From Prevotella sp. (GTDB lineage: Bacteria > Bacteroidota > Bacteroidia > Bacteroidales > Bacteroidaceae), in assembly GCA_017430675.1 (NCBI GenBank), contig JAFRMM010000109.1:1-45709 (forward strand): 45,709 bases of DNA, in the 5' to 3' direction. Positions 1,541-34,453 of this stretch are shown here, one piece after another. A program made the translations under genes and the position numbers. Below the pieces are notes generated by a model that did no database searches, was not told where the DNA came from, and was given only the letters and a program-made list of their open reading frames with translations. Every line of letters begins with the position of its first letter. Within the stretch, counting starts at the first letter, position 1.

Positions 1541-1552
1541 ACATTTAATTTA

Positions 1553-1912: not shown

Positions 1913-2394
1913 ATACTACGTCAACGGCTGACATCTCGTTTATGCTGCTGATCTTCTTCCTCGTGACATCCTCGATGGACACGGATAAGGGACTGTTGCG
2001 CCAGATGGCCCCGCCGACCGTGGAACAACAGTTGCCTACAGATATCAACAAAGATCTGGTGATGCGGGTGAGACTGGACGGTCATGACCAACTGACTTGC
2101 GACGGGAAACCTGTCAATATGAAACAGTTGTCGGATGCTGTGATGGCGAAGGTCAATGTCAGTCGTCTGGAGCATGTCATTTCCATTCAGGCTGACCGTG
2201 AGACCAGTTACGAGGTATATTTCCGGGTGCAGAACACGATAGTCAATGCTTATCAAACCTTACGTGAACGGTATGCCCGAGAGCATTATGGCAAGAGTTA
2301 TATCCATTGTGGTAATGAGGAGCGGAAAACCATCAATGAGCGTTACCCTCAACGTATTAGTGAGGAACCTGTTCAGGAAGGAGGTATCCCATGA
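1873..2394 (+). CDS. exbD: ExbD/TolR family biopolymer transport protein (first copy)
   Basis: 173 aa single-pass inner-membrane protein with a periplasmic domain; partner of ExbB. The basic cytoplasmic N-terminus (MFRKRYRQQ) is followed by TADISFMLLIFFLVTS. Asp20 at the start of that membrane helix matches the proton-carrying Asp of ExbD. The periplasmic domain has the TolR-like fold signature of alternating strands and helices (VMRVRLDGHDQLTCDGKPV). It overlaps the upstream gene by 40 bases and the next exbD by 4 bases (ATGA). The C-terminal tail beyond about residue 135 is polar and not conserved in a way I recognise. Confidence 0.92.
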   Translation: MFRKRYRQQIPELNTTSTADISFMLLIFFLVTSSMDTDKGLLRQMAPPTVEQQLPTDINKDLVMRVRLDGHDQLTCDGKPVNMKQLSDAVMAKVNVSRLEHVISIQADRETSYEVYFRVQNTIVNAYQTLRERYAREHYGKSYIHCGNEERKTINERYPQRISEEPVQEGGIP

Positions 2395-2855
2395 GGCCGA
2401 TGCGGAGCATGTTCCGTACAAAGAGGCACAATGTCCCGTCATTGAACATGGCTTCAATGCCTGACTTGATTTTCACGGTGCTTTTCTTCTTCATGATTGT
2501 CACACACATGCGCAGTGATGAGGTGAAGGTGCGTTATACCGTACCCCAGGGGGTTGAGATCCGGAAACTGGCCAACAAATCCTCGGTGGTGAATATCTAT
2601 ATAGGACGGCTTGGAGATGCCTGGCGGATTCAGTTGAACGGGGAATTGGTGACACCAGAGGAGATCCCTGCCCGAATTGAGCATTTGCGGGATGCCATGT
2701 CACCAGAGAATGCCGAACACCTGACTGTCAGTCTGCGTGCCGACCGTCATACACCAATGGGCATCATCAGCGATGTGAAGCAGACCTTGCAGAAGTCGTA
2801 CGCCCTGCGGATCAACTATAGTGCTACAGATTTAAAACAAGACGAATATGAGTAA
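2391..2855 (+). CDS. exbD: ExbD/TolR family biopolymer transport protein (second copy)
   Basis: 154 aa paralogue of the preceding gene. The basic N-terminus (MFRTKRHNVP) is followed by a membrane helix with MPDLIFTVLFFFMIVTHM, in which Asp25 is the expected proton carrier, and then a periplasmic domain. The start codon sits in an ATGA overlap with the first exbD, and an in-frame ATG at codon 7 is a possible alternative. Two different ExbD subunits per operon suggest a hetero-oligomeric stator, as seen in several Bacteroidota ExbB/D operons (family knowledge). Confidence 0.92.
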   Translation: MRPMRSMFRTKRHNVPSLNMASMPDLIFTVLFFFMIVTHMRSDEVKVRYTVPQGVEIRKLANKSSVVNIYIGRLGDAWRIQLNGELVTPEEIPARIEHLRDAMSPENAEHLTVSLRADRHTPMGIISDVKQTLQKSYALRINYSATDLKQDEYE

Positions 2856-3330
2856 GATTGACAAACTTGACAAGCAGATTCTCCGTCTGATTGCTGAGGA
2901 TGCGCGCATCCCTTTCCTAGAGGTGGCCCGTAGTTGTAATGTCAGTGGTGCTGCTATTCACCAGCGTATCCAGAAACTGACGGCCATGGGGGTGTTGAAA
3001 GGTTCTCAGTATGTGATAGACCCGGAGAAAATCGGTTATGGGACCTGCGCCTATATCGGCCTGAACCTCAAAGATCCCGGAACCTTTGACGAGGTGGTGG
3101 AGAAACTCAAGGATATTCCTGAGGTAGTGGAGTGCCATTATACGACAGGCAACTTCGATATGTTCATCAAACTGTATGCCGTCAACAACCACCATCTGCT
3201 GACAATCATCCACGATAAACTGCAACCGCTGGGTCTGGCCAGCAGTCAGACACTCATATCCTTCCATTCTGCCATCAACCGTCAGTTGCCCATCGTTGAC
3301 ATGCTTTTCGGTGAGGCTGACGAGGAGTGA
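2848..3330 (+). CDS. Lrp/AsnC family transcriptional regulator
   Basis: 160 aa, usual length for the family. An N-terminal winged helix-turn-helix (LDKQILRLIAEDARIPF, then EVARSCNVSGAAIHQRIQKL) precedes a C-terminal RAM ligand/oligomerisation domain (TCAYIGLNL... VECHYTTGNFDMFIKL). Such proteins sense amino acids or related metabolites and bind DNA as dimers or octamers. The start codon overlaps the end of the second exbD by 8 bases, so it is cotranscribed with the proton-channel genes. Whether it controls them is unknown. The C-terminus (LLFGEADEE-like acidic tail) is unremarkable. Confidence 0.93.
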   Translation: MSKIDKLDKQILRLIAEDARIPFLEVARSCNVSGAAIHQRIQKLTAMGVLKGSQYVIDPEKIGYGTCAYIGLNLKDPGTFDEVVEKLKDIPEVVECHYTTGNFDMFIKLYAVNNHHLLTIIHDKLQPLGLASSQTLISFHSAINRQLPIVDMLFGEADEE

Positions 3331-3368
3331 GCGTTCCGGGTTTCTGAATTCCAAAATGATGAAATAGC

Positions 3369-3400
3369 GGATTATGCTACAAAAAGTGGCGTAATCCTTT
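3369..3400 (+). terminator. intrinsic terminator-like hairpin after lrp
   Basis: GGATTATGCTAC (3369-3380) pairs with GTGGCGTAATCC (3386-3397), giving a 12-bp stem with two G-U pairs and an AAAAA loop, followed by TTT. It lies 38 bases after the lrp stop and before the next promoter, so it likely ends the exbBD-lrp transcript. The U-tract is short. Confidence 0.6.
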
Positions 3401-3463
3401 CATTATGCAATAAAATGACAATTATTTGGTAGAAAAAGACAAGTCATATTCAAAATTAGTTTG

Positions 3464-3471
3464 TAACTTTG
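3464..3471 (+). promoter_or_regulatory. Bacteroidota -7 element TAACTTTG
   Basis: TAACTTTG matches TAnnTTTG. Transcription would begin around 3478, about 50 bases before the ATG at 3531. That excludes an upstream start for the next gene. No good -33 box is seen. It is the only clear promoter before the 11-kb AAA+ operon. Confidence 0.6.
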
Positions 3472-3530
3472 CAACCGAAAACCCGAATAAGGCAGAAACC
3501 AATTATTTATTAATCATAAAATTAATCATT

Positions 3531-4970
3531 ATGGCTTATACAGAAACAACAACGACGGGTTATGGAACCCGTGTAGGTAATTCTTTTAAGGCAATAGGCA
3601 GTGGTTTCCTGCTGTTTATTGCAGGTACAGCACTGTTGTGGTGGAACGAGGGACGTGCCGTGAAGACGGAAAAGATGCTCGAAGAGGCAGGCAGTGCATA
3701 CGTTGAGATGGAGAATCCCGGTAAGAAGGATGCCTCTTTGGATGGTGAACTGATCTGCGGAACCGCCATGGCTACGACAGAGGATTCGCTGGTTGATGCG
3801 CAGTTTGGTGTTGGTGCCAAGGCCATTGCCATCAGGCATAAGGTAGAGTACTACCAGTGGGTAGAGCATGCTCAGGAGAAGAGAGAAGACAAACTGGGCG
3901 GTAAGGAAGTAACTACTACCACCTACACCTATACGAAGGAGTGGATGAGCAGTCCTATAGAGTCGGCCCAGTTCAAGGATCCCGCCTACCAGAACAAGAA
4001 CATGGTACTGGCCACTTTTGAGGATTATGAGCAGTATGCTGAGAACGTCTCATGGGGTGCTTATAAGTTGAACGAGAGCCTGATCCACAGCATATCTTCC
4101 AAAGAGGGTATCGAACTGGCCATGGCAGAGGATCTGCTGAGCCAGTTGGATAAGAGCACGCAGACGGCCTATGAGCGTTTCTATGGTGTGCAGAAAAGTA
4201 CTCAGCAACCCACACAGCAACCCGTCCAGCAACCGGTCGTCCCCGATTCTGTAAGAGCCCTGCTCTCTGATTCTGCCAAGGCTGTACTCGACTCCCTGCA
4301 GGCTATCAATGACTCTATCAACAAGCAGATGGAAAATGCCAACAACAAGAAGGATCTGGAATATGTTCATCAGGCCAGTAATGTGCTTTACCTCGGTCGT
4401 GTGCCTGGCTCTCCTGAGGTGGGTGATGTACGTGTGACCTTCGAGCAGATCGTTCCCGCCAAGGTGACGGTGATGGCTGTCGTCGATGGTGACACCTTCA
4501 AGCCTTTCAAGGCCAAGAACGGCAAGCGCTTCCAGACCCTTGTGATGGGTAAGAAGACTGGCGACGAGATTATCGAGGATGCTCAGGCTGCCAACAACAC
4601 ATGGCTGTGGATCCTGCGCATCGTGGGTATCATGATGGTGATCGGCGGTCTGAAGGGTATCTTCGGCTTCCTCACAACGATCCTCAAGGTGGTGCCTTTC
4701 ATCGCAGGTATCTTCGGATGGGGTATTGGTGTCGTCTGCACCGTTATCGGTATTGCCTGGTCACTGATTATTATTGCCCTCGCATGGCTGTTCTATCGTC
4801 CGCTGTTGGGTATCAGCCTTTTGGTACTGGCTGGTTTCCTCATCTGGGTATTCGCCTTCAAGGGTAAGGACAAACTGAAGGAGTTGGCAGCCAAGGCAAA
4901 GAACAAAGGTGCTGAGGCACAGCCTGTTCCTGCTCCAACTGAGCACACTCAGACTCCGGAGAACGTATAA
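3531..4970 (+). CDS. TMEM43 family protein
   Basis: 479 aa membrane protein of the TMEM43 (LUMA) family, whose biochemical role in bacteria is not established. Residues 18-38 form the first membrane helix, including the family-typical LLWWNEGRAVKT. A long non-membrane domain follows (about 40-330), with a Gln/Pro-rich low-complexity stretch (residues 222-235) and a Ser/Asp/Ala-rich region. The C-terminal third has four hydrophobic segments (about 355-460) and ends in a Lys/Ala-rich tail. The ATG at 3531 was chosen because the promoter at 3464 lies inside the longer open frame. The next gene begins 3 bases after its stop. It leads the operon with the AAA+ genes, which hints at a membrane platform for them (inference). 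Confidence 0.85.
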   Translation: MAYTETTTTGYGTRVGNSFKAIGSGFLLFIAGTALLWWNEGRAVKTEKMLEEAGSAYVEMENPGKKDASLDGELICGTAMATTEDSLVDAQFGVGAKAIAIRHKVEYYQWVEHAQEKREDKLGGKEVTTTTYTYTKEWMSSPIESAQFKDPAYQNKNMVLATFEDYEQYAENVSWGAYKLNESLIHSISSKEGIELAMAEDLLSQLDKSTQTAYERFYGVQKSTQQPTQQPVQQPVVPDSVRALLSDSAKAVLDSLQAINDSINKQMENANNKKDLEYVHQASNVLYLGRVPGSPEVGDVRVTFEQIVPAKVTVMAVVDGDTFKPFKAKNGKRFQTLVMGKKTGDEIIEDAQAANNTWLWILRIVGIMMVIGGLKGIFGFLTTILKVVPFIAGIFGWGIGVVCTVIGIAWSLIIIALAWLFYRPLLGISLLVLAGFLIWVFAFKGKDKLKELAAKAKNKGAEAQPVPAPTEHTQTPENV

Positions 4971-4973
4971 GAT

Positions 4974-5375
4974 ATGGTGAAAGTGATTCTGGGCATCATC
5001 CTGGTCAGCGTAGGCGGCGGCATCTATCTGCTGCAGCGTACGACGGGACTGCTGATGTTCAGAATCATTGATTTCTTAGGACTGTCAGATACCGTCGCCG
5101 GTCTTCGTGCCGCCGTCATCCCTATGCCCGAGTTTGTCGTGTATAGCCTGCCTGGTGGCTTATGGTCAGCCTCATACGTGCTGTTGTCAGACGCCCTGTT
5201 CTGTCAACAGCCATTAGCAGTACGGTTGTCATGGGGATCCCTGATTCCGCTGATGGGTGTGGTCTCCGAATTGTTGCAGATGGCAGGACTCTGTCCCGGT
5301 ACGGCCGACTGGCAGGATCTTGTCTGCTACGGTCTGCCGTACATCGTTTATGTGATTTGTTTAATTTTGAAATGA
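4974..5375 (+). CDS. VanZ-like small membrane protein
   Basis: 133 aa with four hydrophobic segments. The stretch SELLQMAGLCPGTADWQDL resembles the VanZ motif E-x-x-Q-x-x-x-p-g-R-x-x-d-x-x-D, though the usual Arg is replaced. VanZ-like proteins are polytopic membrane proteins of mostly unknown biochemistry; some confer teicoplanin resistance. Three bases separate it from the TMEM43 gene and one base from the next ATG, so it is cotranscribed with both. The assignment rests on this single motif plus the membrane layout. Confidence 0.6.
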   Translation: MVKVILGIILVSVGGGIYLLQRTTGLLMFRIIDFLGLSDTVAGLRAAVIPMPEFVVYSLPGGLWSASYVLLSDALFCQQPLAVRLSWGSLIPLMGVVSELLQMAGLCPGTADWQDLVCYGLPYIVYVICLILK

Positions 5376-5376
5376 T

Positions 5377-6369
5377 ATGAGTATAAACATTGGTAAGAAT
5401 ACCGCTATCGTGTTGGTGGTCCTTTTTGGCTTAATGGGGGCATTCACCTTTTATGTAGATCAACAGGAGACGACAGATGGTACCGACTCCGCTACGGAGG
5501 AAAAGACCGACACGGTCGCGGAAGAGAAACCCGTGGTCGTGAATGAACCCTTGGAGGGAGATCCGTATAAGGAACTCGATGACCTCATCGGTCTCGGACA
5601 GGTGAAGGAAGAGGTGCGTACATTGGCCAACTTCGTTAAGGTGCAGAAACAGCGTGAGGCACAGGGGCTGAAGATTCCCAAGATCTCCTATCACCTGGTG
5701 TTCCTCGGCAGTCCTGGTACAGGTAAGACCACTGTGGCCCGTATCGTGGGACGTATCTATAAGGACCTTGGTGTGCTGAAAAAGGGACATACCGTCGAGA
5801 CCGACCGCTCCGGACTGGTCGCCAAGTATATGGGACAGACGGCCCTCAAGACCGACACCATCATCCAGAAGGCCATGAATGGTGTGCTCTTCATTGATGA
5901 GGCCTACTCTCTGGTGCCAGAAGACGGCAGCGGTAGCGACTATGGTCAGGAGGCCATCTCAACCCTGCTCAAGCGCATGGAGGATTACCGTGACAGTCTG
6001 GTGGTCATCATCGCCGGCTATCCTGACGAGATGAAGCGCTTCATCGACTCCAACCCCGGTCTCCAGTCGCGCTTCAACCGCTATATCAGTTTCCCCGACT
6101 ATACTTCCGGAGAGTTGTATGACATCTTCTGCATGTACATGCGCAAGAACCAATATACACTGACGGATGAGGCCTCCGACTATCTCAAGCAGGCACTTAG
6201 TAATGCCGTGGCGCACAAGGACCGCAACTTCGGTAATGCCCGTTATGTGCGTAATATCTTTGAGAAGGCCATCCAGCAGCAGGCCAACCGCTTGTCGGGC
6301 CGGACGAACCTGTCCACGGAACAGTTGACGGAACTGACACAGGAGGATATCCAACAGTCATTCAAATAA
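5377..6369 (+). CDS. membrane-anchored CbxX/CfxQ-type AAA+ ATPase
   Basis: 330 aa. An N-terminal hydrophobic helix (about residues 9-27) precedes an acidic Thr/Glu-rich linker (28-65) and one AAA+ module of the CbxX/CfxQ (CbbX, SpoVK-like) type. Walker A is GSPGTGKT (111-118) and Walker B is VLFIDE (170-175). Pore-loop-like KYMGQTA, sensor-1-like IIAGYPDEM, an arginine finger in SRFNR and the C-terminal lid FGNARYVRNIFEKA are all present, so it should be an active ATPase. It is closely similar to modules 2-4 of the 1368-aa protein at the end of the operon. The residues after the membrane helix are acidic, which by the positive-inside rule would put the ATPase outside the cytoplasm; that is unlikely for an ATP user and needs testing. 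Confidence 0.88.
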   Translation: MSINIGKNTAIVLVVLFGLMGAFTFYVDQQETTDGTDSATEEKTDTVAEEKPVVVNEPLEGDPYKELDDLIGLGQVKEEVRTLANFVKVQKQREAQGLKIPKISYHLVFLGSPGTGKTTVARIVGRIYKDLGVLKKGHTVETDRSGLVAKYMGQTALKTDTIIQKAMNGVLFIDEAYSLVPEDGSGSDYGQEAISTLLKRMEDYRDSLVVIIAGYPDEMKRFIDSNPGLQSRFNRYISFPDYTSGELYDIFCMYMRKNQYTLTDEASDYLKQALSNAVAHKDRNFGNARYVRNIFEKAIQQQANRLSGRTNLSTEQLTELTQEDIQQSFK

Positions 6370-6381
6370 GACAACGGGGAG

Positions 6382-7653
6382 ATGAGAAGAATCTTAGGAA
6401 TTACCTTTCTGCTGTTCGTCGTGCTCTCGGCAACGGCGCAAAACTATGAGCGGAAGGACTTTACGTTTAAGACCATAAAGGTGAAGAATGCCGAGGGTGA
6501 GGTCTCCCATGTCAAGGTGGGGGCTTATGTCGGCAAGAAACTCATCAAGGAATATTCCTACGAACTGGTGCCCGCGCTCTCTGCAGACTTGGCTGAGTAT
6601 GTAGGTACCGTCTCAGAGTATGACCTGAACTTCGATGGCTATCCCGATGCCGATATCTATCTCGGCTATATGGGCGGCTTTGCCAACAACACCCATCATG
6701 AGGCCCTGCTTTGGGATCCCTCTGGGCACTGCTTTGTAGAGGGAGAGGGCTATGGCGAGATCGGTGAGCCTGTGGTAGTAGAAGAAAAGGAGTATATTCA
6801 GACCACACTCTCTAATGGTCCGGAACACAGGGTAACGACCTATTATAAATGGCAGGGCCATCGCCTACAGGATTATCTCTGCAACACCTGGGCCATCGAA
6901 GACGACGACTATGTCAGTTTCGACGGTCTGATGAACTATCCCTGTTACCGCTTCGATGCGAAACTCGACGGGCGCATCCCCGTGATCATCGTGTTCCAAC
7001 GCACTGATGATGATATCATCGCTGGCTATATCTACTATCCCAAGGCCAAGACCCCTGCTCCTATCCTCATTGCGGGCAGTGTCGTCCAATACGGAGACAA
7101 ACTATATTATCATTTCGACGAATACCAGCCCGATGGTATCATTACGGGTAATATCTCATTACAGACACCTGTGGTGTGCGACTATTTTTCTGAGATGGAA
7201 GGTACCTGGACCAATCCCAAGACGCTGAAGGAGATGAAAATGACGGATTTGCAATTTAGCCGTGAGATGCCCAAGTGGTTCACGAAGTCGTTGCTCAGCC
7301 CCGAGGATCCAGGCAATATCGGCCGTGAGTATTCCTTCCGGCAGTGGAATGAGGGTTATCAGGATCTGATAGGTGGCCATATCACTTTCCGTGGCGCTGG
7401 CAAGAACAAGGTGCACTTCGAGTGTGGCAACATACGTCATAATATTGCGGAGGGTCGCAGTGATGATGACCGTCCTGCCGTACTCAAGGGCAACGTGTTC
7501 GAATATCAGGATGTCAACGAGTGCGGCTACGGTTTCCGTGCCACGTTCTTTCCCCGTTTCGTGGTGCTGACGACAACGACGGATTACAATACCCTCGACT
7601 GCTTCGGTGCTGGCGCTTCTTTCGATGGTGTATATATTAAGGTGAAACAATAA
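6382..7653 (+). CDS. exported protein of unknown function with DxNxDG motif
   Basis: 423 aa. The signal peptide is MRRILGITFLLFVVLSATAQ, cleaved after Ala-Gln as usual in this group. I recognise no family with confidence. Residues 81-89 read DLNFDGYPD, an EF-hand/FG-GAP-like acidic loop (Asp81, Asn83, Asp85, Asp89) followed by a strand, as in VCBS/XAC2610-like repeats. The C-terminal half (about 270-423) is a separate beta-rich region with several Gly and aromatic residues. It starts 12 bases after the anchored AAA+ gene and 9 bases before the next gene, so it belongs to the same operon. An exported protein within an ATPase operon suggests an envelope role (inference). Confidence 0.78.
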   Translation: MRRILGITFLLFVVLSATAQNYERKDFTFKTIKVKNAEGEVSHVKVGAYVGKKLIKEYSYELVPALSADLAEYVGTVSEYDLNFDGYPDADIYLGYMGGFANNTHHEALLWDPSGHCFVEGEGYGEIGEPVVVEEKEYIQTTLSNGPEHRVTTYYKWQGHRLQDYLCNTWAIEDDDYVSFDGLMNYPCYRFDAKLDGRIPVIIVFQRTDDDIIAGYIYYPKAKTPAPILIAGSVVQYGDKLYYHFDEYQPDGIITGNISLQTPVVCDYFSEMEGTWTNPKTLKEMKMTDLQFSREMPKWFTKSLLSPEDPGNIGREYSFRQWNEGYQDLIGGHITFRGAGKNKVHFECGNIRHNIAEGRSDDDRPAVLKGNVFEYQDVNECGYGFRATFFPRFVVLTTTTDYNTLDCFGAGASFDGVYIKVKQ

Positions 7654-7662
7654 CAGCAGGAT

Positions 7663-9165
7663 ATGAAAAAACTGATCATACTTGCCGTCATCTCGCTGTG
7701 CGTGATGGCTGCCTGTAAGAACAACAAGACACAGGCGACGGATTCGGGGACAGATTCCACGATCGCCGACAGTGTGGCTGTCGCCGAGGAGCCGCAGGAC
7801 ACCACGCCCATGCCCATGTTCCTCTATTGTCTCGACAAGGACTATATGCAGATGGTCTATTGGACAGACATTAAGGAACCCAAGAAGGACAAGGACAATG
7901 CCGAGTATTTCGACGACATGCACCAGTCGTGGGCCTTGCAGGAGGGTTTCCGCCGCAATGCCGCCCAATACACGAAGATGCTTTTGGACGAAGGCAAGAC
8001 TACTGACATCAGGTTCATCGGGGAACTCCTGAAGAACCCTGATGGCGAGGAGATGTATAGTGGCGAACTCCATAGCCGTACATCCATCCCGTCGCCGGGT
8101 CTCCGCTATGCCTTTGCCAATGCTAATGACCCCGTCATGAAGAAGAGCGACTGGAAGAGCATGAACATTGTGGTGACGGAGAGTTATCTCCAGACGCGGA
8201 AACAGATGACGCAGAAACTCCTGTCGCCCTATGACAAGACCAATCCCCTGCCTGCTACTGTCATCAAACAGTTGGAGCAGGAGTACGGTATGAAATGTCA
8301 GCGCTCTGAGGCCGTCTGCCGTTACAACGACCGCTATACCTATGGTGTCCTTCAGTTCAAGGGCGTCTATAAGAAAAAGAAGGAGTATGGTGAGGAGCGT
8401 GAGATCGCCCTGGCCCTTGAAGTGCTCACCGATGGCGACAAGGTCTATTCCTATCCTGTGGAGGGCTATATCTACGATGGTATGCCCACATGGAACGTTG
8501 ATGACGACGGCGAGTATATCTCCAGTTCCTTCCCCGCCGCCTTCGAGGGTCCCAACGGTCCCGAACTCTGTTTCATCCACTGGGCGCCAGAGAGTTGTAC
8601 CGTGGGTCTTTTCCTGATCCGCGACGGCAAACTGGTGCGCGTGGTCTATGAGGGCTATCACTCGATGGTTGACGAGGAAACGCCACTCTGGAAGAAAGAT
8701 ATCGAACAACTGCAGAAACTCTATCTCGCCGATGATCCCCACGAGAACAAGGACTACAAGTTCGCGAAGTACCGTTACATCTGGATCGACAACGACGACA
8801 CCGAGGAGATCTGGTTGCGCGACAAGGACGATAAGCACGGTGCCTTCTTCACCCGTCACAATGGGGAATTCAAACTTATCGCCACGGAGAACGGCCGTCT
8901 GCAACCCACCTTCCTCCGCAGCCGTGATGGTGTGAGTTATCTCCGTATCTCAGGCTCTGCTGGCGGTCCATCGTACTATACTCAGGTCATTGAGTTGAAG
9001 AACAGTCAGGTTCTCCACCGCTTCACCGCCCTGGAGATCTATGGTGAGATCGATGAGTGCAGTTTCGACGGTAAACCCATGGACAAGGCCGAGGGCAAAC
9101 GCTATATGGAGTCGTTGCCCGAGGTGGACAACATTGCCATCTGGTGGCGCGAAATACAGAATTAA
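7663..9165 (+). CDS. exported lipoprotein of unknown function
   Basis: 500 aa. Lipobox VMAAC at residues 16-20 (Cys20) after a short hydrophobic segment, followed by a low-complexity Asn/Lys/Thr/Asp/Ser linker that could act as an outer-membrane tether. The body is rich in aromatic and charged residues with no family I can name. Residues 375-384 (IDNDDTEEIW) look like a degenerate version of the acidic loop in its two neighbours. It is part of the tight rightward operon (9 bases upstream, 18 downstream). The three exported genes in a row may encode partners or diverged paralogues; the shared motif is weak evidence. Confidence 0.78.
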   Translation: MKKLIILAVISLCVMAACKNNKTQATDSGTDSTIADSVAVAEEPQDTTPMPMFLYCLDKDYMQMVYWTDIKEPKKDKDNAEYFDDMHQSWALQEGFRRNAAQYTKMLLDEGKTTDIRFIGELLKNPDGEEMYSGELHSRTSIPSPGLRYAFANANDPVMKKSDWKSMNIVVTESYLQTRKQMTQKLLSPYDKTNPLPATVIKQLEQEYGMKCQRSEAVCRYNDRYTYGVLQFKGVYKKKKEYGEEREIALALEVLTDGDKVYSYPVEGYIYDGMPTWNVDDDGEYISSSFPAAFEGPNGPELCFIHWAPESCTVGLFLIRDGKLVRVVYEGYHSMVDEETPLWKKDIEQLQKLYLADDPHENKDYKFAKYRYIWIDNDDTEEIWLRDKDDKHGAFFTRHNGEFKLIATENGRLQPTFLRSRDGVSYLRISGSAGGPSYYTQVIELKNSQVLHRFTALEIYGEIDECSFDGKPMDKAEGKRYMESLPEVDNIAIWWREIQN

Positions 9166-9183
9166 AGGAATAATAGTAAAGAT

Positions 9184-10275
9184 ATGAAAAAAGGTTTATT
9201 ATTGATATGTGCCATGCTGGTACTGACGGCTTCAGCGCAGAAACGTATAAGCATCGACGAACTTCAGGCTCAGTGGCAGACGAAGACTATCCAAGGTCCC
9301 AAGAGCGGGGGGATCCTCGACCTTGTGGGTATGTTCAATCTCAATTATCCCACCTACAGCGGCAGTGAGTTCCTGACGGATGTGTCGCGCCCTGCCGATC
9401 AGCAGAAGTGGCTTATTACACTTGACCGTCCCAATGGTTTCGCCAGTTTCGCCGAGGGCAGCGACGACGCCTCCAGCGAGTCAATGCAGGCCTGTGTGTG
9501 GAAGCGCAGTAACGGTCATAAACTCTTCGCCATCGCCTTCGAACAGCAGTCATCCCAAGTGAAGGCCATGGTGGCTTTCTACGATCTGGATCCTGCCACG
9601 GGCATCCTGAAACCAGAGAAGGGCCTCGACCGTCTCTTTGCACCGAATCATCCTGAGGGTATCGTGCATATCAGTCTGCCCCAGCATGGCAAGGACATGA
9701 AGGTGACGGAATACTATATCAACGCCATGTTTGCCATCACGCACGTCTATCTCTGGGACGGCATGAAGCCCGGGCGCGAGCGCGTGGAGATCGAGAACAT
9801 CGACAAGATGTGGGATGAATACAGTGATCAGGCCATGATGGACGGTCAGCAGCCCGTCACCCGCTACGCCGTCATCGACATCGACCGTGACGGTTCGCCC
9901 GAACTGATGCTCGGCTCTGAGAGCGACGACTATCAGGCCGTCTTTGCCCTCTATGACGGGAAGTACGAACTCATCGCCGCCAAGGATTACAAGCGCCATC
10001 TGAATTTCTATCCCCCGAAGGCGGTGGGCAGTGCCGGCGGTTGTGGCACGGGCTGCTTCCTCATCAACTGGACACTGCTGGAGAACAGTCGTCCGAAGCA
10101 CCGCATCGACAACCAGCAGGAGTATAATTTCGAGACCGACAAGATGGTGGATCACTACGAACTCGACGGCCGTGAGGTGGTGTATGCCGAGGAGGGCGAC
10201 CGTCTGGTCAAGTCCTTCGGCGAGTCCGTGGAGATGACGATTCCCTGGCGCCCGTTAAACAGATATAACCAATAA
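9184..10275 (+). CDS. exported protein of unknown function with DxDxDG motif
   Basis: 363 aa. The signal peptide ends in LTASAQ. Residues 232-240 read DIDRDGSPE, a clear DxDxDG calcium-loop-like motif (Asp232, Asp234, Asp236, Glu240) followed by LMLGS, as in FG-GAP/VCBS repeats. A Gly-rich segment SAGGCGTGC lies near residue 285. No enzyme family is recognised. It lies 9 bases before the multi-AAA gene. The same kind of acidic loop occurs in the exported protein at 6382, suggesting that both bind calcium or share an ancestral repeat. Confidence 0.78.
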   Translation: MKKGLLLICAMLVLTASAQKRISIDELQAQWQTKTIQGPKSGGILDLVGMFNLNYPTYSGSEFLTDVSRPADQQKWLITLDRPNGFASFAEGSDDASSESMQACVWKRSNGHKLFAIAFEQQSSQVKAMVAFYDLDPATGILKPEKGLDRLFAPNHPEGIVHISLPQHGKDMKVTEYYINAMFAITHVYLWDGMKPGRERVEIENIDKMWDEYSDQAMMDGQQPVTRYAVIDIDRDGSPELMLGSESDDYQAVFALYDGKYELIAAKDYKRHLNFYPPKAVGSAGGCGTGCFLINWTLLENSRPKHRIDNQQEYNFETDKMVDHYELDGREVVYAEEGDRLVKSFGESVEMTIPWRPLNRYNQ

Positions 10276-10284
10276 GATCAGGAT

Positions 10285-13200
10285 ATGAAAAGATGTATCA
10301 AGTGCCAGCACGAACTGGCTGATAACGCCCGTTTCTGTACCATCTGTGGCACCCGCCAGCCGGAAGGTGTACCCGTCAGTCCCACCGTTCAATCTGTTGC
10401 TGTGCCACAGCAACAGACACAACGCCCACGGATTGATATCGACTCCCTCTTGGCCGAGGCCGTGGGTAAGGAGTCTGTCCTGGATGAGGTGCAGCGCCTT
10501 GTCGCTTTCTATAATGCCTCGAAGCAGGAGGGACGTATGCGCCAGCGCCCGGAGATGGACATGCTTGTACTCGGCAATAGTGGTACGGGTAAGACCTTCG
10601 TCATCAATCTCATCCACCAGTTGTTCCTCGCCTATGGCGTGCTTACCAATCCCCGTCTCAAGAAGGTGGATGCCTCGGAGTATAACCAGTGGATCAACAG
10701 CCTCTCCGAGCGTGGGCTCGACGACATGAAAGGTCAGTTGCTCGTGATCGACAATGTCCATCTGCTGATGACCGACACGGAGCACCTGACGCCCATCGAC
10801 CGCTTGATAAGTATGATGGAAGACTGGGAGCGCGACCTTTCTGCCGACTGGCTGACTTATCCTGTCGTGATCTTCGCAGGAGAGAAGAACCAGGTGGAGT
10901 ATTACTTCCAGAAGAAGAAGAGCGGGCGCAGCCGCTTTGCCAAGGTGCTCGAACTCCACGACTGCAGCGCGCAGGAACTCTACGCTATCTGTAAGCGTGA
11001 ACTCAGCCGTCGCGGTCTCTCCGTGGAGGGTGAGGCCGACGGGAAGTTACTCGGCTATTTCCGCTATCTCGTGAAGAACCGCAAACTCACCTTCCGCAAC
11101 GCCTATGAGGCCACGGAGAAGGCCGACGGCATCTATAAGCGCTGTCTGGAGAACGGCCATACTACGCAGGTGGCGCCCGACGATATCTCCGGTGACATCT
11201 TCGTGGAGCAGACACCCGACGAGATACTGAGCCGTCTCGACGCTTTCATCGGTATCGACGACGTGAAGCGCGAGATGCACAGCATCGTGGAGAATATCAA
11301 ACAGTACCGCATCGAGAAGAACGACCCGAAGGCCCTGCCGCCGTTCAGCGACCAGTACGTGTTCCTCGGCAATCCCGGCACGGGAAAGACTACCGTGGCC
11401 CGTATCTTCGCCGACATGCTCAGTGCCTTGGGCATCCTGCCCGGCGGTCAACTCATCGAGGTCACCCGTGAGGATCTTGTGGCAAAGTTCGTGGGTGGCA
11501 CGGCCCCGAAGACCCGTCAGGTGGTCGATTCCGCCATGGGCGGCGTGCTCTTCATCGACGAGGCCTACACCCTCTCCTCCGGTGAGGGCAGCGACTATGG
11601 GCGCGAGGCCATCAACACCCTGCTGAAGCCTGTCGAGGAACTGCGCGGCAAGTTCGTCTGTATCATCGCGGGCTACACCAAAGAGATGCTTGACTTCTTC
11701 GATGCCAACTCCGGTCTCGCCTCCCGTTTCAACCGTCGTCTGGAGTTTGCCGACTATACCCCCGACCAACTCACCAGCATCTTCCGTGGTAAGACGGCGA
11801 AGGAAGGCTATACCCTCGATGCCGATGCCGACGAGCATCTGGAGAAGTTCTTCGAGAAGATGTACAAGCGTCGCACGAAGAACTTCGGCAATGCCCGTGA
11901 GGTGATGTCCGCCTTCCAGGAGGCTGTGGAGCGTCACCGTGAGCGGCTGCTTCAGGAGGGCAGGGCAGAGGACCATGTCTTCAACCGTGCCGACATAGAG
12001 GGCGAGGAAGCCCTGAAGGAACTCGACGTGGATCAGATCGTCGCCCAACTCGACAAGGACTTCGTGGGCATGCAGGCCGTGAAGGACTTCGTGCGCGAGA
12101 TCGCCTCGCAGAAGGCCGACATGGACGAGCGCCTGGAACTCGGACTCCAGACGCAGCAGACCATGAAACTTAATATCATCCTCACCGGTAATCCCGGCAC
12201 GGGCAAGACCACCGTCGCCCGTAAACTCGGCGAGATCCTCCATGCCATGAAACTGCTCTCCTCTCCCGACATCGTGGAGTGCGAGCGCAAGGACATCGTG
12301 GGCAAGTACCAGAACTCGTCCGGCGAGGCGATGGGCAAGTACTGCGACCTGGCCATGGGTAAGTTGCTCTTCATCGACGAGGCCTATTCGTTCGCACCCG
12401 TCAATGATGCGGGCACGAAGGATGCCGAGGCCACGAAAGCCGTCGAGGTGCTGATGAAGCGCATGGAGGACGATGCCGGTAAGTTCGCCGTGGTCCTCGC
12501 CGGCTACCCTGCTCCCATGGACAATTTCATCCGTGTGAACGAGGGTATCGCCCGCCGTATCACCCATCGCATCCATATCGACGACTACTCCGCCGTGGAA
12601 CTCGTGAAGATCTTCACCCAGATGGCTGACCGTCAGGGCTACCTGTTGGCGAAGGAGACGGAGGCCGTGCTCTTCCGCAAGGTCAGTGAGATGCTCGCCT
12701 CGAAAGATAAGAACTGGGGCAATGCCGGAGAGATGGCGAAGTTGTTGGAGACCGTTAAGAGCCGCCTGTCGCTCCGCATCCGCGAACTGTCCAAGGAGGA
12801 GCGTACCGCAGAGGTCTATCAGACCATCGAGCCCGAGGATATCCCCTTCGAGCAGCGCAAAGCCCTCTCTGCCGAGGAATCCCTCGCCGAACTGGACAAA
12901 CTGGTAGGGCTGGACAATATCAAGACACAACTGCGCCAGATGGTGGAGTCGTTCCGCGCTGATGAGGCCCGCGCCAAACTGACGGGCGAGACCGTCCGTC
13001 GTGAGGCACCCCATTATATCTTCATGGGTAATCCCGGCACGGGCAAGACCACCGTGGCTCGTCTCGTGGCCGACATCCTCACTTCCCTCGGCGTACTCTC
13101 CCGTGGCCATCTCGTTGAGGTCACGGAGAAGGACCTTGTGGCGGGCTATACAGGCCAGACGGCCATCAAGACCTCCAACGTCATCGACTCCGCCATGGGC

Positions 13201-14391
13201 GGCGTGCTCTTCATCGACGAGGCGTACTCGCTGAACAAGGGCGATGGCGGCGGCTTCGGCATCGAGGCCATCAACACCCTGTTGCAGCGGCTCACCGCCG
13301 ATGCGGGTAAGTTCGTCTGCATCCTCGCGGGCTATACCAAGGAGATGACCGACTTCCTGAAGACCAACTCCGGCCTGGAGCGCCGCTTCCGCACTATCCA
13401 GTTCGACGACTACGGTCCCGAGGCCTTGGAGCAGATCTTCCGCAACCTCCTGGCAAAGAACAATATGACCCTCGACGAGGGGGCCGAGAAGGGCATCAGC
13501 GCCTTCTTCCATACGGTCTATGACCAGCGTAACCCGCAGTCGTTCGGCAATGCCGGTGCCGTGGTGAACATCTTCAAGCAGGCCAAGGAGCGCCAGGGTG
13601 CCCGTCTGGCTCCGAAACTGGAGCAGCAGCAGTGTACGCCCGACGACCTTCGCACGCTCACGCTCGTGGATATCGCCGGCGAACAGGCCAAGGCCAATGC
13701 CACCACCACGGATCTCATGCAGGCCTTCGATAAACTCGTGGGTGCCGCCAGTGCGAAGAAGAAGATGGAGAACCTGCTCAATCAGATCAAACTCAACCGC
13801 CGTCGTGCAGAACTGACGCATACGCCGTTCCAGAACCTCAGTATCTGCTTCGCCTTCATCGGTCATCCTGACACGGGACAGGTGGAGTTCCGCGAGGCCA
13901 TGCGACAGGTGCTCTCTGACATCGGCATCATTGACAAGGAGGGCATGAAAACGCTCTTTGCCTCCGACCTGCTCGCCCGTGTCGCTGGTAATCCGCAGAT
14001 GGAGCGCCGACTCATCGACGACATGCTCGCCCAGCACGGCAAGACCATCTATGTCATCGATGCCAACCCGTCGGAGTGGAAACAGGTGGAGGAACAGTTG
14101 CCCGTGCTCGCGGAGTTCGTCAACGACCGTTTCGTGTTCGACGACTACACGCCCGCCGAACTCGCCCGTCTGTTCACCGACTACCTCCGTCAGCAGAACA
14201 TGCGCCTGGCCGACGATGCACAGGAGACGCTCGTGGGCTACTTCGGTTCCCATGCCGAGGGCGGTCGCTCGGAGATGAAACTCCTCTATAATGAGGTGAT
14301 CTTCCGCCAGAACACCCGTCTGGCCTCCGCTGCCGATATCAGCGATGCCGACCTCGTTACCATCACCAAGGCCGACATCCCGACGGACTAA
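10285..14391 (+). CDS. zinc-ribbon protein with five tandem CbxX-type AAA+ modules
   Basis: 1368 aa, no signal or membrane segment, so cytosolic. An N-terminal zinc ribbon (Cys4, Cys7, Cys18, Cys21) and a Pro/Gln linker precede five AAA+ modules. Module 1: Walker A GNSGTGKT (97-104), but Walker B LLVIDN, with Asn157 in place of the catalytic Glu. Modules 2, 3 and 4 are intact: GNPGTGKT at 362-369, 635-642 and 915-922; Walker B FIDE ending at Glu426, Glu699 and Glu979. Module 5 is degenerate: GHPDTGQV (1193-1200), Lys replaced by Gln1199, and Walker B VIDA with Ala1260. Modules 2 and 4 carry SRFNRR- and RRFRT-like arginine-finger segments. CbxX-type ATPases normally have one module and work as hexamers, so this is a covalent tandem form. 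Codons end heavily in C or G. Confidence 0.9.
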   Translation: MKRCIKCQHELADNARFCTICGTRQPEGVPVSPTVQSVAVPQQQTQRPRIDIDSLLAEAVGKESVLDEVQRLVAFYNASKQEGRMRQRPEMDMLVLGNSGTGKTFVINLIHQLFLAYGVLTNPRLKKVDASEYNQWINSLSERGLDDMKGQLLVIDNVHLLMTDTEHLTPIDRLISMMEDWERDLSADWLTYPVVIFAGEKNQVEYYFQKKKSGRSRFAKVLELHDCSAQELYAICKRELSRRGLSVEGEADGKLLGYFRYLVKNRKLTFRNAYEATEKADGIYKRCLENGHTTQVAPDDISGDIFVEQTPDEILSRLDAFIGIDDVKREMHSIVENIKQYRIEKNDPKALPPFSDQYVFLGNPGTGKTTVARIFADMLSALGILPGGQLIEVTREDLVAKFVGGTAPKTRQVVDSAMGGVLFIDEAYTLSSGEGSDYGREAINTLLKPVEELRGKFVCIIAGYTKEMLDFFDANSGLASRFNRRLEFADYTPDQLTSIFRGKTAKEGYTLDADADEHLEKFFEKMYKRRTKNFGNAREVMSAFQEAVERHRERLLQEGRAEDHVFNRADIEGEEALKELDVDQIVAQLDKDFVGMQAVKDFVREIASQKADMDERLELGLQTQQTMKLNIILTGNPGTGKTTVARKLGEILHAMKLLSSPDIVECERKDIVGKYQNSSGEAMGKYCDLAMGKLLFIDEAYSFAPVNDAGTKDAEATKAVEVLMKRMEDDAGKFAVVLAGYPAPMDNFIRVNEGIARRITHRIHIDDYSAVELVKIFTQMADRQGYLLAKETEAVLFRKVSEMLASKDKNWGNAGEMAKLLETVKSRLSLRIRELSKEERTAEVYQTIEPEDIPFEQRKALSAEESLAELDKLVGLDNIKTQLRQMVESFRADEARAKLTGETVRREAPHYIFMGNPGTGKTTVARLVADILTSLGVLSRGHLVEVTEKDLVAGYTGQTAIKTSNVIDSAMGGVLFIDEAYSLNKGDGGGFGIEAINTLLQRLTADAGKFVCILAGYTKEMTDFLKTNSGLERRFRTIQFDDYGPEALEQIFRNLLAKNNMTLDEGAEKGISAFFHTVYDQRNPQSFGNAGAVVNIFKQAKERQGARLAPKLEQQQCTPDDLRTLTLVDIAGEQAKANATTTDLMQAFDKLVGAASAKKKMENLLNQIKLNRRRAELTHTPFQNLSICFAFIGHPDTGQVEFREAMRQVLSDIGIIDKEGMKTLFASDLLARVAGNPQMERRLIDDMLAQHGKTIYVIDANPSEWKQVEEQLPVLAEFVNDRFVFDDYTPAELARLFTDYLRQQNMRLADDAQETLVGYFGSHAEGGRSEMKLLYNEVIFRQNTRLASAADISDADLVTITKADIPTD

Positions 14392-14449
14392 GCATGAAGG
14401 CCCTCGCCTCATCAATTGACGTGGGTTCGATGAAAACAGATACGACCTT

Positions 14450-14475
14450 CCTATCGCGCGTTCGCGCGCGATAGG
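14450..14475. terminator. 11-bp hairpin with TTCG loop after the AAA+ operon
   Basis: CCTATCGCGCG (14450-14460) and CGCGCGATAGG (14465-14475) form a perfect stem around a TTCG tetraloop, 58 bases after the multi-AAA stop codon. No U-tract follows, so it may be a structural or Rho-linked end rather than an intrinsic terminator. Confidence 0.5.
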
Positions 14476-14494
14476 AGGTTAAAGCCGAAAACAA

Positions 14495-14561
14495 GTGTCC
14501 CATCTGTCCCATGTGTCCCTGTCGTTTTGCGGAAAAGGGACAGATGGGACAGGTGGGACAC
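14495..14561. repeat. 26-bp imperfect inverted repeat built of 9-bp TGTCCCATS units
   Basis: The left arm 14495-14520 holds three 9-bp TGTCCC units. The right arm 14536-14561 is nearly its reverse complement, with three GGGACA units. They are separated by 15 bases. Transcribed either way it would fold into a long hairpin. It is non-coding and looks like a dispersed intergenic repeat element. Confidence 0.7.
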
Positions 14562-14599
14562 ATAAAAAGTGAGTATGCCAACTATATTATGCGTGCACA

Positions 14600-14619
14600 C
14601 ATATACGCGCGCGTATATG
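14600..14619. repeat. 20-bp perfect palindrome
   Basis: CATATACGCGCGCGTATATG is its own reverse complement. The central alternating CGCGCGCG flanked by TATA is a candidate protein-binding or cruciform/Z-prone site. No gene is nearby on either side within 200 bases. Confidence 0.6.
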
Positions 14620-14699
14620 GAAGCCCTCCCCGGAATAGAAGGGGTCGGGTGCAGGATATCTGGTGGTACTTATCACCCGGATTCTCTCGAGAATTCATC

Positions 14700-14739
14700 C
14701 CTATAGTGGCTCCGTTTTCCGCTACGGAGCCACTATAGG
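14700..14739. repeat. 16-bp perfect inverted repeat containing GTGGCTCCGT
   Basis: CCTATAGTGGCTCCGT (14700-14715) and its exact reverse complement (14724-14739) enclose an 8-base loop. An A-run follows. The core GTGGCTCCGT is the same word that recurs in the 21-bp tandem repeat just downstream. Confidence 0.7.
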
Positions 14740-14747
14740 AAAAAATA

Positions 14748-14801
14748 GTGGCACGATAGCAACAAACGGTGGCTCCGTAGCAACAAATGGTGGCTCCGTA
14801 G
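14748..14801. repeat. 21-bp tandem repeat, about 2.6 copies
   Basis: Units begin at 14748, 14769 and 14790 with the pattern GTGGCTCCGTAGCAACAAA plus two bases; the first copy has GTGGCACGAT. The unit shares GTGGCTCCGT with the hairpin at 14700-14739. The short open frames across it on both strands only translate the repeat. Confidence 0.7.
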
Positions 14802-14846
14802 TCGTCAGTCATTCGCTGATTAAAACAAGTCATTCGTTGAATAGAA

Positions 14847-14877
14847 TTGCACCGTTATCTTATTCTGTTTACTTTTG
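14847..14877 (+). promoter_or_regulatory. promoter TTG-N20-TACTTTTG
   Basis: TTG (14847-14849) and TACTTTTG (14870-14877) are separated by 20 bases, matching the Bacteroidota -33/-7 pattern. Transcription would start near 14884. That excludes the upstream in-frame TTG at 14847 and sets the ATG at 14910 as the start of the next gene. Confidence 0.65.
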
Positions 14878-14909
14878 CAGTTACTATTAACAGTTTAAAT
14901 GGTTGTTTT

Positions 14910-16187
14910 ATGAAAGGTACTTTTTTGTTAGTGATGTCGTTCTTGATATTCCAGTCAGTAAAAGCAGACGACTTCACCTATTTGAATGTTCAGAAGACAG
15001 ATGGAACGGGTGTTTCGCTTGAACTCTCCGACCTTTCCATAACGTTCTCTGATGGTTTATTTATGGCGGGCGACACACAGATTGCCCTCACAGATCTCAG
15101 CAAGATGTTTTTCTCAGATGAAGAGATGGACAGTCAGGCTGTTTACGAAAGCATAACTCTTGGTGATAGTGGCAAGACAACCTATTGCAGTGACGAGTCA
15201 CTTGATTTCAGTGCTATTGATAATGTGAAGGCATTTGTGGCTACAGGTTTCGACAAGGATCAGGGAATCATCTGGCTGACACGTGTCACCAAGGTTCCCG
15301 CGGAGACACCGGTACTGTTGAAAGGAGATGCCAATTCTACCTTCGAGGTGCCAGTGCTATCATCCTCTCTGTCTTCTTACTATAAGAATATGTTGATAGG
15401 TAACCTCGGGTCTTCTATCACGATAGATGAGACAGAAGAAGACGGAGCCTATGTGAATTACTACCTGAAGAATGGAGAGTTTACGAAGGTCAACGGCTCA
15501 GCGACAGTAGGTGAGAACAAGTGCTACCTTCGTCTGCCTGCCGCGTTTAATACGGCACATGCCGGGTCTTCACAATCTGTCACAATTGGCAGTACTGGCA
15601 AGGCCACCTATGCTCCCTCTGTCGATGTTGACTTTACCAACGTGGATGGTCTGAAGGCATTCACGGCTACGGGTTATGAGAAGAATAGCAACACGGTCTG
15701 GCTGACGCGCGTGTTCAGGGTTCAGGCTGGTGAGGGTGTCCTGTTGAAAGGAGATGCGGGAGACTACGAAATCCCTTCAGAAGCCGTACAATCCAACTAT
15801 AGTAACATGTTTGTTGGGAATATAAGTGGTGAGTCACTGGACATTGATGAGAATGATGGCGACTTAAGGAATTACTATCTGTCAGAAGGAACGTTTGTCA
15901 GTGTGAACGGTACTGCCAATATCGGTAATGGCAAGTGTTATTTGCAACTTCCTGTGTCTTTTGCCTCTCTTACTCGTGGTTCCCAAAACAGTACCGATTA
16001 CGGTCTGTCAGAGCAGGAGACGATCCAGATGAAGATTAGTACTATAGCAGGAAATATGACAGGTATTAATGAAACTATCCAGACTGGTGTCGAACAGGAT
16101 GTCTATTATAATTTACAAGGCATGCGTGTAGATAACCCCACAAGGGGGATCTATATCCGTAATGGCAAGAAGGTCGTTATTAAATAA
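14910..16187 (+). CDS. exported two-repeat protein with T9SS-like C-terminal end
   Basis: 425 aa. The signal peptide (MKGTFLLVMSFLIFQSVKA) is followed by a short strand-rich region, two related repeats of about 125-130 residues (near 81-210 and 223-350) and a C-terminal end. Each repeat runs S-x-T-x-G-x-x-G-K-x-T-Y ... KAF-ATG ... WLTRV ... VLLKGD ... NYYL ... G-K/N-CYL-LP. The end YYNLQGMRV ... GIYIRNGKKVVIK resembles the YxLxGxxV...GiYxxxGkkvvvk end of Prevotella secreted proteins and type A T9SS sorting domains. It is therefore a possible cargo of the T9SS encoded further right (inference). It is more A/T-rich in codon use than the AAA+ operon before it. Confidence 0.78.
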   Translation: MKGTFLLVMSFLIFQSVKADDFTYLNVQKTDGTGVSLELSDLSITFSDGLFMAGDTQIALTDLSKMFFSDEEMDSQAVYESITLGDSGKTTYCSDESLDFSAIDNVKAFVATGFDKDQGIIWLTRVTKVPAETPVLLKGDANSTFEVPVLSSSLSSYYKNMLIGNLGSSITIDETEEDGAYVNYYLKNGEFTKVNGSATVGENKCYLRLPAAFNTAHAGSSQSVTIGSTGKATYAPSVDVDFTNVDGLKAFTATGYEKNSNTVWLTRVFRVQAGEGVLLKGDAGDYEIPSEAVQSNYSNMFVGNISGESLDIDENDGDLRNYYLSEGTFVSVNGTANIGNGKCYLQLPVSFASLTRGSQNSTDYGLSEQETIQMKISTIAGNMTGINETIQTGVEQDVYYNLQGMRVDNPTRGIYIRNGKKVVIK

Positions 16188-34421: not shown

Positions 34422-34446
34422 AGTAAAAAAGGAAAAAAGTAAATAA
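34419..34446 (+). repeat. A-rich short repeat at the porP/porK junction
   Basis: AAGTAAAAAAGGAAAAAAGT starts at the porP stop codon and is roughly complementary to the TTACCTTTTTACCTTT repeat (34508-34540) inside the porK signal peptide. The porK ATG lies between. Pairing is imperfect, with bulges. Confidence 0.5.
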
Positions 34447-34453
34447 CGAAAAT

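What the first reader, a model, noticed from the sequence alone, without database searches (positions are those of the whole stretch)
3531..14391. Candidate undescribed AAA+ envelope system in one operon
Seven tightly spaced genes (gaps of 1-18 bases) behind one promoter: TMEM43-family membrane protein, VanZ-like protein, membrane-anchored AAA+, three exported proteins and a zinc-ribbon protein with five AAA+ modules. Six AAA+ modules in total, with dedicated membrane and exported genes, does not match any system I know. CbxX-type ATPases remodel protein assemblies, so a machine that couples cytosolic ATP use to the envelope is plausible. The substrate is unknown.
Basis: partly seen in the sequence, partly recalled or inferred. 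Interest (0 to 1): 0.85.

Follow-up and report, generated by a model that had tools for sequence, protein, structure and literature searches.

The report
Prevotella TMEM43–AAA+ chaperone envelope operon
In bacteria of the Prevotella group, a membrane protein of a family also found in our own nuclear envelope is encoded beside chaperone-type molecular motors and a changing set of exported proteins, probably to tend the cell envelope; the pairing recurs, but the exact seven-gene set is a local version of it.

Summary
The seven genes are real, co-directional and 1-18 bases apart. TMEM43, six AAA+ modules and three exported proteins are confirmed; "VanZ" is not supported by HMM, and four of the six modules (anchored AAA+, modules 2-4) are canonical.

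The exact gene set was seen in no other locus examined. What recurs: (i) TMEM43 with the membrane-anchored AAA+: in 398 genomes of one genus they co-occur (47 both, 51 TMEM43 only, 16 AAA+ only, 284 neither, strict cut), and 27 genomes carry them within 5.4 kb, all on one strand; (ii) the 500-aa lipoprotein, downstream of 27 of 39 close TMEM43 relatives. The 1368-aa protein looks recruited: its relatives lie in a Ser/Thr-kinase–FHA–PP2C cassette. One exported protein carries an XAC2610 domain (peptidoglycan-hydrolase inhibitor fold); the other two resemble it more weakly.

Best reading: a modular envelope-maintenance operon in which SpoVK/CbbX/EccA-clade AAA+ chaperones serve a TMEM43-centred membrane complex with variable periplasmic partners. 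Complex, client and mechanism are inferred. Unexplained: flanking charges of the anchored AAA+ place its ATPase outside the cytoplasm.

The parts
3531..4970 (+). TMEM43-family membrane protein (479 aa), N-terminal TM, large middle domain (extracytoplasmic by inference), C-terminal TMs
   Evidence: PF07787 E 7.9e-64, two stretches; 3506 proteins at E<=0.001 among the 7999 candidates scored; four TMs by hydropathy
4974..5375 (+). 133-aa multi-TM protein, VanZ-like only by eye
   Evidence: No Pfam hit in the window copy and no VanZ in 6 of 6 orthologues; alignment A4; a 47% relative lies beside the AAA+ and TMEM43 in the divergent locus L199
5377..6369 (+). aaaM: single-TM anchored SpoVK/CbbX/EccA-clade AAA+ (330 aa)
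   Evidence: PF00004, PF17866; TIGR02881 307.4 bits, under its cut-off; within 5.4 kb of TMEM43 in 27 genomes; TM followed by an acidic stretch in 24 of 24 single-TM copies listed
6382..7653 (+). exp1: exported protein with XAC2610-related domain and DxNxDG loop
   Evidence: NF047539 42.9 bits over cut-off 35; 49.4-49.7 bits in 3 of 4 further copies scanned, none in the 268-aa copy of L005
7663..9165 (+). exp2: lipoprotein (500 aa), commonest partner of close TMEM43 relatives
   Evidence: 27 of 39 operons; C-terminal 160 aa homologous to exp3 (hhalign 99.0, E 3.9e-18); model pLDDT 87.8
9184..10275 (+). exp3: exported two-domain protein, invariant DxDxD..PE loop
10285..14391 (+). big: zinc-ribbon protein with five CbxX modules (1368 aa), M2-M4 canonical, M1 partial, M5 dead
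   Evidence: grouped next to L007 and L008, which lie in the kinase-type cassette
3369..3397 (+). terminator-like hairpin between the upstream lrp-like gene and the operon
   Evidence: Pattern match only
3464..3471 (+). possible Bacteroidales -7 promoter element TAACTTTG (consensus recalled)
   Evidence: Sequence; no paired -33 element

Best explanation
A modular envelope-maintenance operon. SHOWN: TMEM43 and a membrane-anchored AAA+ of the SpoVK/CbbX/EccA clade form a recurring genetic pair, with a variable set of exported proteins, one with an XAC2610 domain, two resembling it, and in relatives a YARHG protein; in one subclade a soluble multi-module AAA+ protein is added whose nearest relatives belong to a kinase-FHA-PP2C cassette. 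INFERRED: TMEM43 forms an inner-membrane complex that displays its large domain to the periplasm and docks the exported lipoproteins; the AAA+ proteins act as dedicated chaperones that use ATP to assemble, activate or recycle this complex or one envelope (perhaps peptidoglycan-synthesis) enzyme, as SpoVK does for MurG. The exported proteins would be periplasmic sensors, or inhibitors of wall hydrolases. The 1368-aa protein would be a single-chain, mostly pre-assembled version of such a ring, with three working modules between inactive ones.
For: TMEM43/aaaM co-occurrence (47/51/16/284 of 398 genomes, odds ratio 16.4; looser cut 72/26/47/253, odds ratio 14.9) and linkage (27 of 27 close pairs on one strand, 23 with aaaM downstream and 4 upstream); an aaaM-like AAA+ directly downstream in 2 of the 6 further order-level TMEM43 loci fetched (L070, L071) and, reordered but with the vanZ-like gene, beside the 38%-identical TMEM43 of L199. 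exp2 in 27 of 39. XAC2610 relations of exp1, exp3 and, through exp3, exp2. YARHG in the one c4 cargo copy scanned, a domain proposed to bind peptidoglycan (PMC3355149, abstract and passages). AAA+ clade of dedicated chaperones with envelope roles (PMC10659427, passages); GY sensor-1 signature in aaaM and M2-M4.
Against: No client, interaction or phenotype is known. aaaM is missing from 25 of 39 operons by the downstream gap rule (in some genomes it lies upstream or elsewhere), 21 of the 47 genomes with both genes do not have them close together (fragmented MAGs), and no aaaM orthologue was found in two of seven big-bearing genomes. Flanking charges of aaaM predict an extracytoplasmic ATPase. 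The XAC2610 resemblance of exp2 and exp3 rests on one domain, moderate Z (5.8, 6.5) and low Foldseek TM-scores, which may be a common arrangement. Co-occurrence is not corrected for phylogeny.
Confidence: 0.45

Rival explanations
1. Phospho-signalling output: the large AAA+ keeps the job it has in the kinase-FHA-PP2C cassette, so the operon is a branch of a Ser/Thr phosphorylation pathway and the AAA+ assembles a signalling complex rather than chaperoning an envelope client.
For: The nearest relatives, L007 and L008, are in that cassette (the L008 contig starts too late to show the kinase), and 6 of 7 big-bearing genomes (not G001) also carry the ~1100-aa paralogue.
Against: No kinase, FHA or PP2C gene matches in the window or in the six TMEM43 loci tested; 33 of 39 TMEM43 operons show no large protein (with L001 and L006).
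Confidence: 0.15
2. Immunity island: the exported proteins are inhibitors of lysozyme-like effectors or host lysozyme, collected as variable cargo; TMEM43 and the AAA+ only help their maturation.
For: XAC2610 is the immunity protein of a lysozyme-like T4SS effector, modelled to insert a loop into its active site (PMC10933484, passages); exported gene content varies between genomes; exp1 passes the NCBIfam cut-off.
Against: No effector gene was recognised among the operon genes, though none was searched for systematically, and the alternative cargo c12 has a sub-threshold zeta-toxin-like match; exp2 is kept widely rather than swapped.
Confidence: 0.15
3. Loose co-transcription: a cargo operon of unrelated exported genes in which TMEM43 and AAA+ genes travel without a common machine.
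For: Gene content and order vary; of 39 close TMEM43 relatives 10 have none of aaaM, exp1-3, c4 or c12 downstream.
Against: 27 of 27 close TMEM43-aaaM pairs are on one strand, in either order, and the pairing recurs beside TMEM43 genes of only 38-39% identity.
Confidence: 0.18
4. 5+1 ring: the five modules of the large protein plus one anchored aaaM close one hetero-hexameric ring at the membrane.
For: Module arithmetic and the dead, finger-less M5 at the open end.
Against: Among the 39 operons, most of the 14 with aaaM show no large protein; the large protein occurs without a found aaaM orthologue in G003 and G010; kinase-cassette relatives have three to five modules and no aaaM-labelled gene in the cassette loci listed.
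Confidence: 0.05

Closest known systems
SpoVK / CbbX / EccA clade of AAA+ chaperones
   Same: Sequence family, lid domain, GY sensor-1 signature; small dedicated roles, SpoVK and EccA1 linked to envelope synthesis (PMC10659427, passages)
   Different: Membrane anchor on aaaM; tandem modules in one chain; TMEM43 and lipoprotein partners; scores under the SpoVK, EccA and CbbX cut-offs (aaaM)
Kinase - CbxX AAA+ - zinc-ribbon FHA - PP2C cassette of Bacteroidales
   Same: Family of the 1368-aa protein: zinc ribbon plus tandem CbxX modules
   Different: No kinase, FHA or PP2C match in the window
TMEM43/LUMA
   Same: PF07787 profile match
   Different: Eukaryotic TMEM43 is a nuclear-envelope/ER protein tied to emerin and lamins (PMC7889174, passages) and listed as a cofactor of the E3 ligase RNF26 (PMC12765900, one passage); no AAA+ partner of it was seen in the listings
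X-Tfi XAC2610 / PliI / Tsi1 hydrolase inhibitors
   Same: Domain family of exp1; fold resemblance of exp3 and, more weakly, exp2 C halves; exported or lipoprotein
   Different: No cognate effector gene recognised; larger proteins with additional domains

Membership tests
TMEM43 (PF07787) | Pfam profile over gathering score | tested here: met
   215.8 bits against 23.3
SpoVK/CbbX/EccA AAA+ clade | GY signature in sensor-1 (PMC10659427) | tested here: met
   By eye in the alignment: aaaM, M2, M3, M4 have AGY; M1 (AGE) and M5 (DAN) do not
SpoVK equivalog (TIGR02881) | curated cut-off 422.95 bits | tested here: not met
   aaaM 307.4 bits; the 681 bits of the large protein are a sum over six stretches
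EccA of type VII secretion (TIGR03922) | cut-off 466.65 bits over the whole profile | tested here: not met
   aaaM 277.7 bits over profile 250-553 of 557; the 626 bits of the large protein are a sum over five stretches
CbbX (TIGR02880) | cut-off 459.25 bits | tested here: not met
   aaaM 239.5 bits; the 590 bits of the large protein are a sum over six stretches
VanZ | Pfam VanZ profile | tested here: not met
   No VanZ match in 6 of 6 orthologues at E<=10
XAC2610-related domain (NF047539) | cut-off 35 bits | tested here: met
   exp1 42.9 bits; three of four further copies 49.4-49.7
XAC2610-like fold (exp2, exp3) | structural match to 4qtq | tested here: inconclusive
IetA anti-phage ATPase | NF042959 cut-off 510 bits | tested here: not met
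   25.8 and 76.1 bits; PADLOC IetA models, which have no cut-off here, match at 37.9 and 95.5 bits
XAC2610-type inhibitor function | inhibition of a lysozyme-like enzyme | not testable with these tools
   needs an assay

The most novel reading that the evidence does not exclude
The TMEM43 partner is an extracytoplasmic AAA+ motor. In 24 of 24 single-TM copies listed an acidic stretch follows the TM helix, and where it was computed the N-terminal flank is near neutral to basic (often ending GCGC), which by the positive-inside rule puts the ATPase in the periplasm, facing TMEM43's large domain and the lipoproteins, as torsin AAA+ proteins lie in the ER/perinuclear space of eukaryotes. This would need a periplasmic nucleotide source or an unusual topology.
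Probability: 0.06. Interest if true: 0.92.

Novelty: new variant of a known kind. Interest (0 to 1): 0.55.

Why it matters
TMEM43 is a human disease protein (ARVC5, Emery-Dreifuss muscular dystrophy; PMC7889174, passages) whose molecular role is, to my knowledge, unsettled. A bacterial gene pair of TMEM43 with an AAA+ chaperone gives a testable partner in a simple organism, and would add an envelope client to the little-explored SpoVK/CbbX/EccA clade. A single-chain AAA+ with active and dead modules is a natural fixed-order ring to study. No paper on bacterial TMEM43 operons or on this AAA+ pairing was seen in the listings (15 of 1,596 shown; 12 of 4,929; 3 of 3; 10 of 2,282; 2 of 2; 5 of 5; 15 of 51; 8 of 41); most listed rows of the large ones hold other term pairs. 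PMC10659427 has a figure of operons and domain architectures of this AAA+ clade, with a zinc-binding label in its legend; figures are not held, so zinc-ribbon CbxX operons may be drawn there. Its text has no TMEM43 and no kinase.

Tried and rejected
Fixed seven-gene machine: rejected, the full set was not seen again. 5+1 hexamer: disfavoured. Type VII secretion: aaaM matches only the AAA+ part of the EccA profile and scores below its cut-off. Anti-phage defence: PADLOC matches fall on the two AAA+ proteins, best IetA 95.5 bits for the large one, none for the other five proteins; NCBIfam's version is far under its cut-off. RNA element: no Rfam hit at gathering scores in 3000-15000. PDB sequence searches with exp2, exp3 and exp1 profiles gave no hit better than E 0.2, nor did exp3 alone (E 0.17). 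hhalign of exp2 against the exp1 profile gave nothing; that profile had four sequences. Foldseek of the whole exp2 model gave no match at E<=0.001. A homologue search with TMEM43 listed 120 proteins of 81-100% identity, too alike for a good model, and the two structure jobs went to exp2 and exp3, so TMEM43 was not folded.

Limits of the counts. L146 was dropped (the first gene call missed TMEM43; the same place refetched as L183 is counted). L003 holds only the large gene. L006 shows the large protein as two overlapping ORFs; it was left as it is. One search takes 71 loci (window included); gap rule 200 bases, first nine genes. Its 28 TMEM43 genes under 62% are the highest-scoring Pfam matches plus order- and phylum-level ones, not a random draw. 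The 12 loci were fetched because their TMEM43 and aaaM matches lie close together, so describes them and they are not added. In one search only two first-look candidates per genome were scored, five, so absences there are soft. The strict cut (63 best aaaM genomes, E<=2.8e-136) was set by me by rank; the table at E<=1e-90 is given too. Identities of the order-level genomes are not told, so they may or may not belong to the Prevotella group.
Full report
What is there. Seven co-directional ORFs fill 3531-14391 with gaps of 3, 1, 12, 9, 18 and 9 bases. Pfam and NCBIfam name gene 1 as TMEM43, gene 3 (aaaM) and gene 7 (big) as CbxX-type AAA+, and gene 4 (exp1) as carrying an XAC2610-related domain. 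The small membrane gene 2 has no VanZ match in six orthologues. Genes 5 and 6 have no Pfam family at E<=0.1.

The AAA+ modules. In the alignment, aaaM and M2-M4 of big have Walker A GxPGTGKT, the DE Walker B, the AGY sensor-1 signature given for the SpoVK/CbbX/EccA clade (PMC10659427, passages) and the arginine finger. M1 has Walker A and the finger but a non-canonical Walker B and no GY; M5 has lost all. Solved relatives by sequence are CbbX (E 1.7e-51) and EccA1 (1.7e-47).

Conservation of the set. One scan of genome contigs with big found 14 loci. Eight (L001-L006, L009, L011) have best segments at least 76% identical; L003 is too short to show neighbours, and the other seven carry TMEM43 on the same contig. 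Gene content between TMEM43 and big varies: L074 lacks exp1; L075 and L076 have a different 638-aa protein and no aaaM; L077 and L078 carry other exported genes. In 249 genomes of the genus of G003 (the genome behind L004, an uncultured Prevotellaceae bacterium), the only matches listed at 77% or more over the full length are in G003 and G008, while 122 of 249 match at 1e-60, most of the listed ones in open frames of about 1,100 aa (two candidates scored per genome).

Origin of big. Eighteen loci of other big relatives were compared with the proteins of L087: the AAA+ protein is followed by a relative of the zinc-ribbon FHA protein in 18 of 18, preceded by a relative of the Ser/Thr kinase in 17 (the L008 contig begins too late to show it), and accompanied by PP2C in 15 (missing in L010, L082, L083) (Pfam names from the L087 copies). 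A 21-row tree puts the six TMEM43-operon proteins in one group (100/99) beside L007 and L008; the program warns of long branches, L007 and L008 among them, and the root is unknown. The simplest account is one recruitment from such a cassette.

The core pair. TMEM43 is over the cut-off in 98 of 398 genomes of the genus, 8 of 393 of the order and 3 of 395 of the phylum, G003 counted in each. In 71 loci, taking downstream genes with gaps up to 200 bases, the 39 TMEM43 genes at least 70% identical (window included) have exp2 in 27, aaaM in 14, c4 in 14, exp3-like in 12, c12 in 10, the vanZ-like gene in 5, exp1 in 4 and big in 4 (6 if L072 and L073 are added from L001 and L006); 9 of 39 run into a contig or stretch end. 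The four at 62-70% have big in 2 and aaaM in 2; the 28 under 62% have aaaM in 1. aaaM at E<=1e-90 occurs in 119 of 398 genomes. With TMEM43 that gives 72 both, 26 TMEM43 only, 47 aaaM only, 253 neither (odds ratio 14.9); for the 63 best aaaM genomes it is 47, 51, 16, 284 (odds ratio 16.4, Fisher p 2e-20); neither is corrected for kinship. Twenty-seven pairs lie within 5.4 kb, 27 of 27 on the same strand, 23 with aaaM downstream and 4 upstream; three more share a contig at 31-63 kb. Of the 47 strict genomes with both, 26 have them close and 21 do not. Of six further order-level TMEM43 loci fetched (38-43% identical), two (L070, L071) have an aaaM-like AAA+ directly downstream. In L199 the order is vanZ-like, aaaM, TMEM43, although TMEM43 is only 38% identical.

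How it may work. The AAA+ clade is described as dedicated chaperones; SpoVK activates MurG, and EccA1 is tied to mycolic-acid production (PMC10659427, passages). The simplest reading is that aaaM serves a TMEM43-centred membrane complex, with exported proteins as periplasmic sensors or wall-hydrolase inhibitors, and that big adds a second, fixed-order motor in one subclade. Steps shown: families and linkage. Supported by a tree: the origin of big. Inferred: complex, client, chaperone action.

What does not fit. In 24 of 24 single-TM aaaM copies listed (12, 12) the 20 residues after the TM helix have net charge -1 to -9; the up to 15 residues before it have -1 to +2 in the 12 (not computed; the L077 start, the one at -1, is uncertain). 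By the positive-inside rule this predicts an extracytoplasmic ATPase, which would have no known ATP supply. The L070 version has a TM hairpin followed by basic residues, consistent with a cytosolic motor. TM helices were called by simple hydropathy. Torsins, ER-localised AAA+ ATPases activated by a nuclear-envelope protein (PMC4358337, listing abstract), are the parallel for the bold reading. This needs an experiment.

Literature. Searches for TMEM43 with bacterial terms, for SpoVK/CbbX/EccA with Bacteroid*, and for PP2C/FHA/CbxX/kinase showed nothing on these operons in the rows listed; five papers were seen in passages (searches cover six papers, PMC7159879, PMC7889174, PMC3355149, PMC10933484, PMC10659427 and PMC12765900; the first gave no CbxX, VanZ or TMEM43). 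The library holds open-licence papers only.

Noticed in passing
L079-L092, L007, L008, L010, L012: A recurring Bacteroidota cassette: double zinc ribbon protein, Ser/Thr kinase (C-terminal TMs in L087), zinc-ribbon tandem CbxX AAA+, zinc-ribbon FHA, PP2C, in many followed by a metA-like gene (metA named by eye). No description was seen in the listings.
   Followed up: partly
window 33462-39582: porP/gldK/gldL/gldM/gldN-like run of genes (type IX secretion), named by eye from the ORF translations.
   Followed up: no
window 704-3330: TolQ/ExbB-like, two ExbD-like and an Lrp/AsnC-like gene upstream (named by eye); the Lrp-like gene is also next upstream of TMEM43 in L072, L075, L076, L129, L141 and L142.
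   Followed up: partly
aaaM N-termini; L072 125-aa and L138 119-aa genes: A GCGC motif at the start of the TM helix in 18 of the 24 single-TM anchored AAA+ copies (by eye; not in the window copy), shared with small two-TM proteins in two of the operons; meaning unknown.
   Followed up: no
L075 9466-11382, L072 4070-5992, L131, L133, L136: An alternative exported ~640-aa cargo protein; two copies scanned have weak nucleoside-hydrolase-like N-terminal and P-loop/zeta-toxin-like C-terminal Pfam matches, all below cut-offs.
   Followed up: no
L067 6581-8949: A TMEM43 gene followed by LemA and DUF2207 genes (Pfam), another envelope-type context for TMEM43.
   Followed up: no
L006 10001-14051: The large AAA+ gene is split into two overlapping ORFs in this MAG, either a frameshift or an assembly error.
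   Followed up: no
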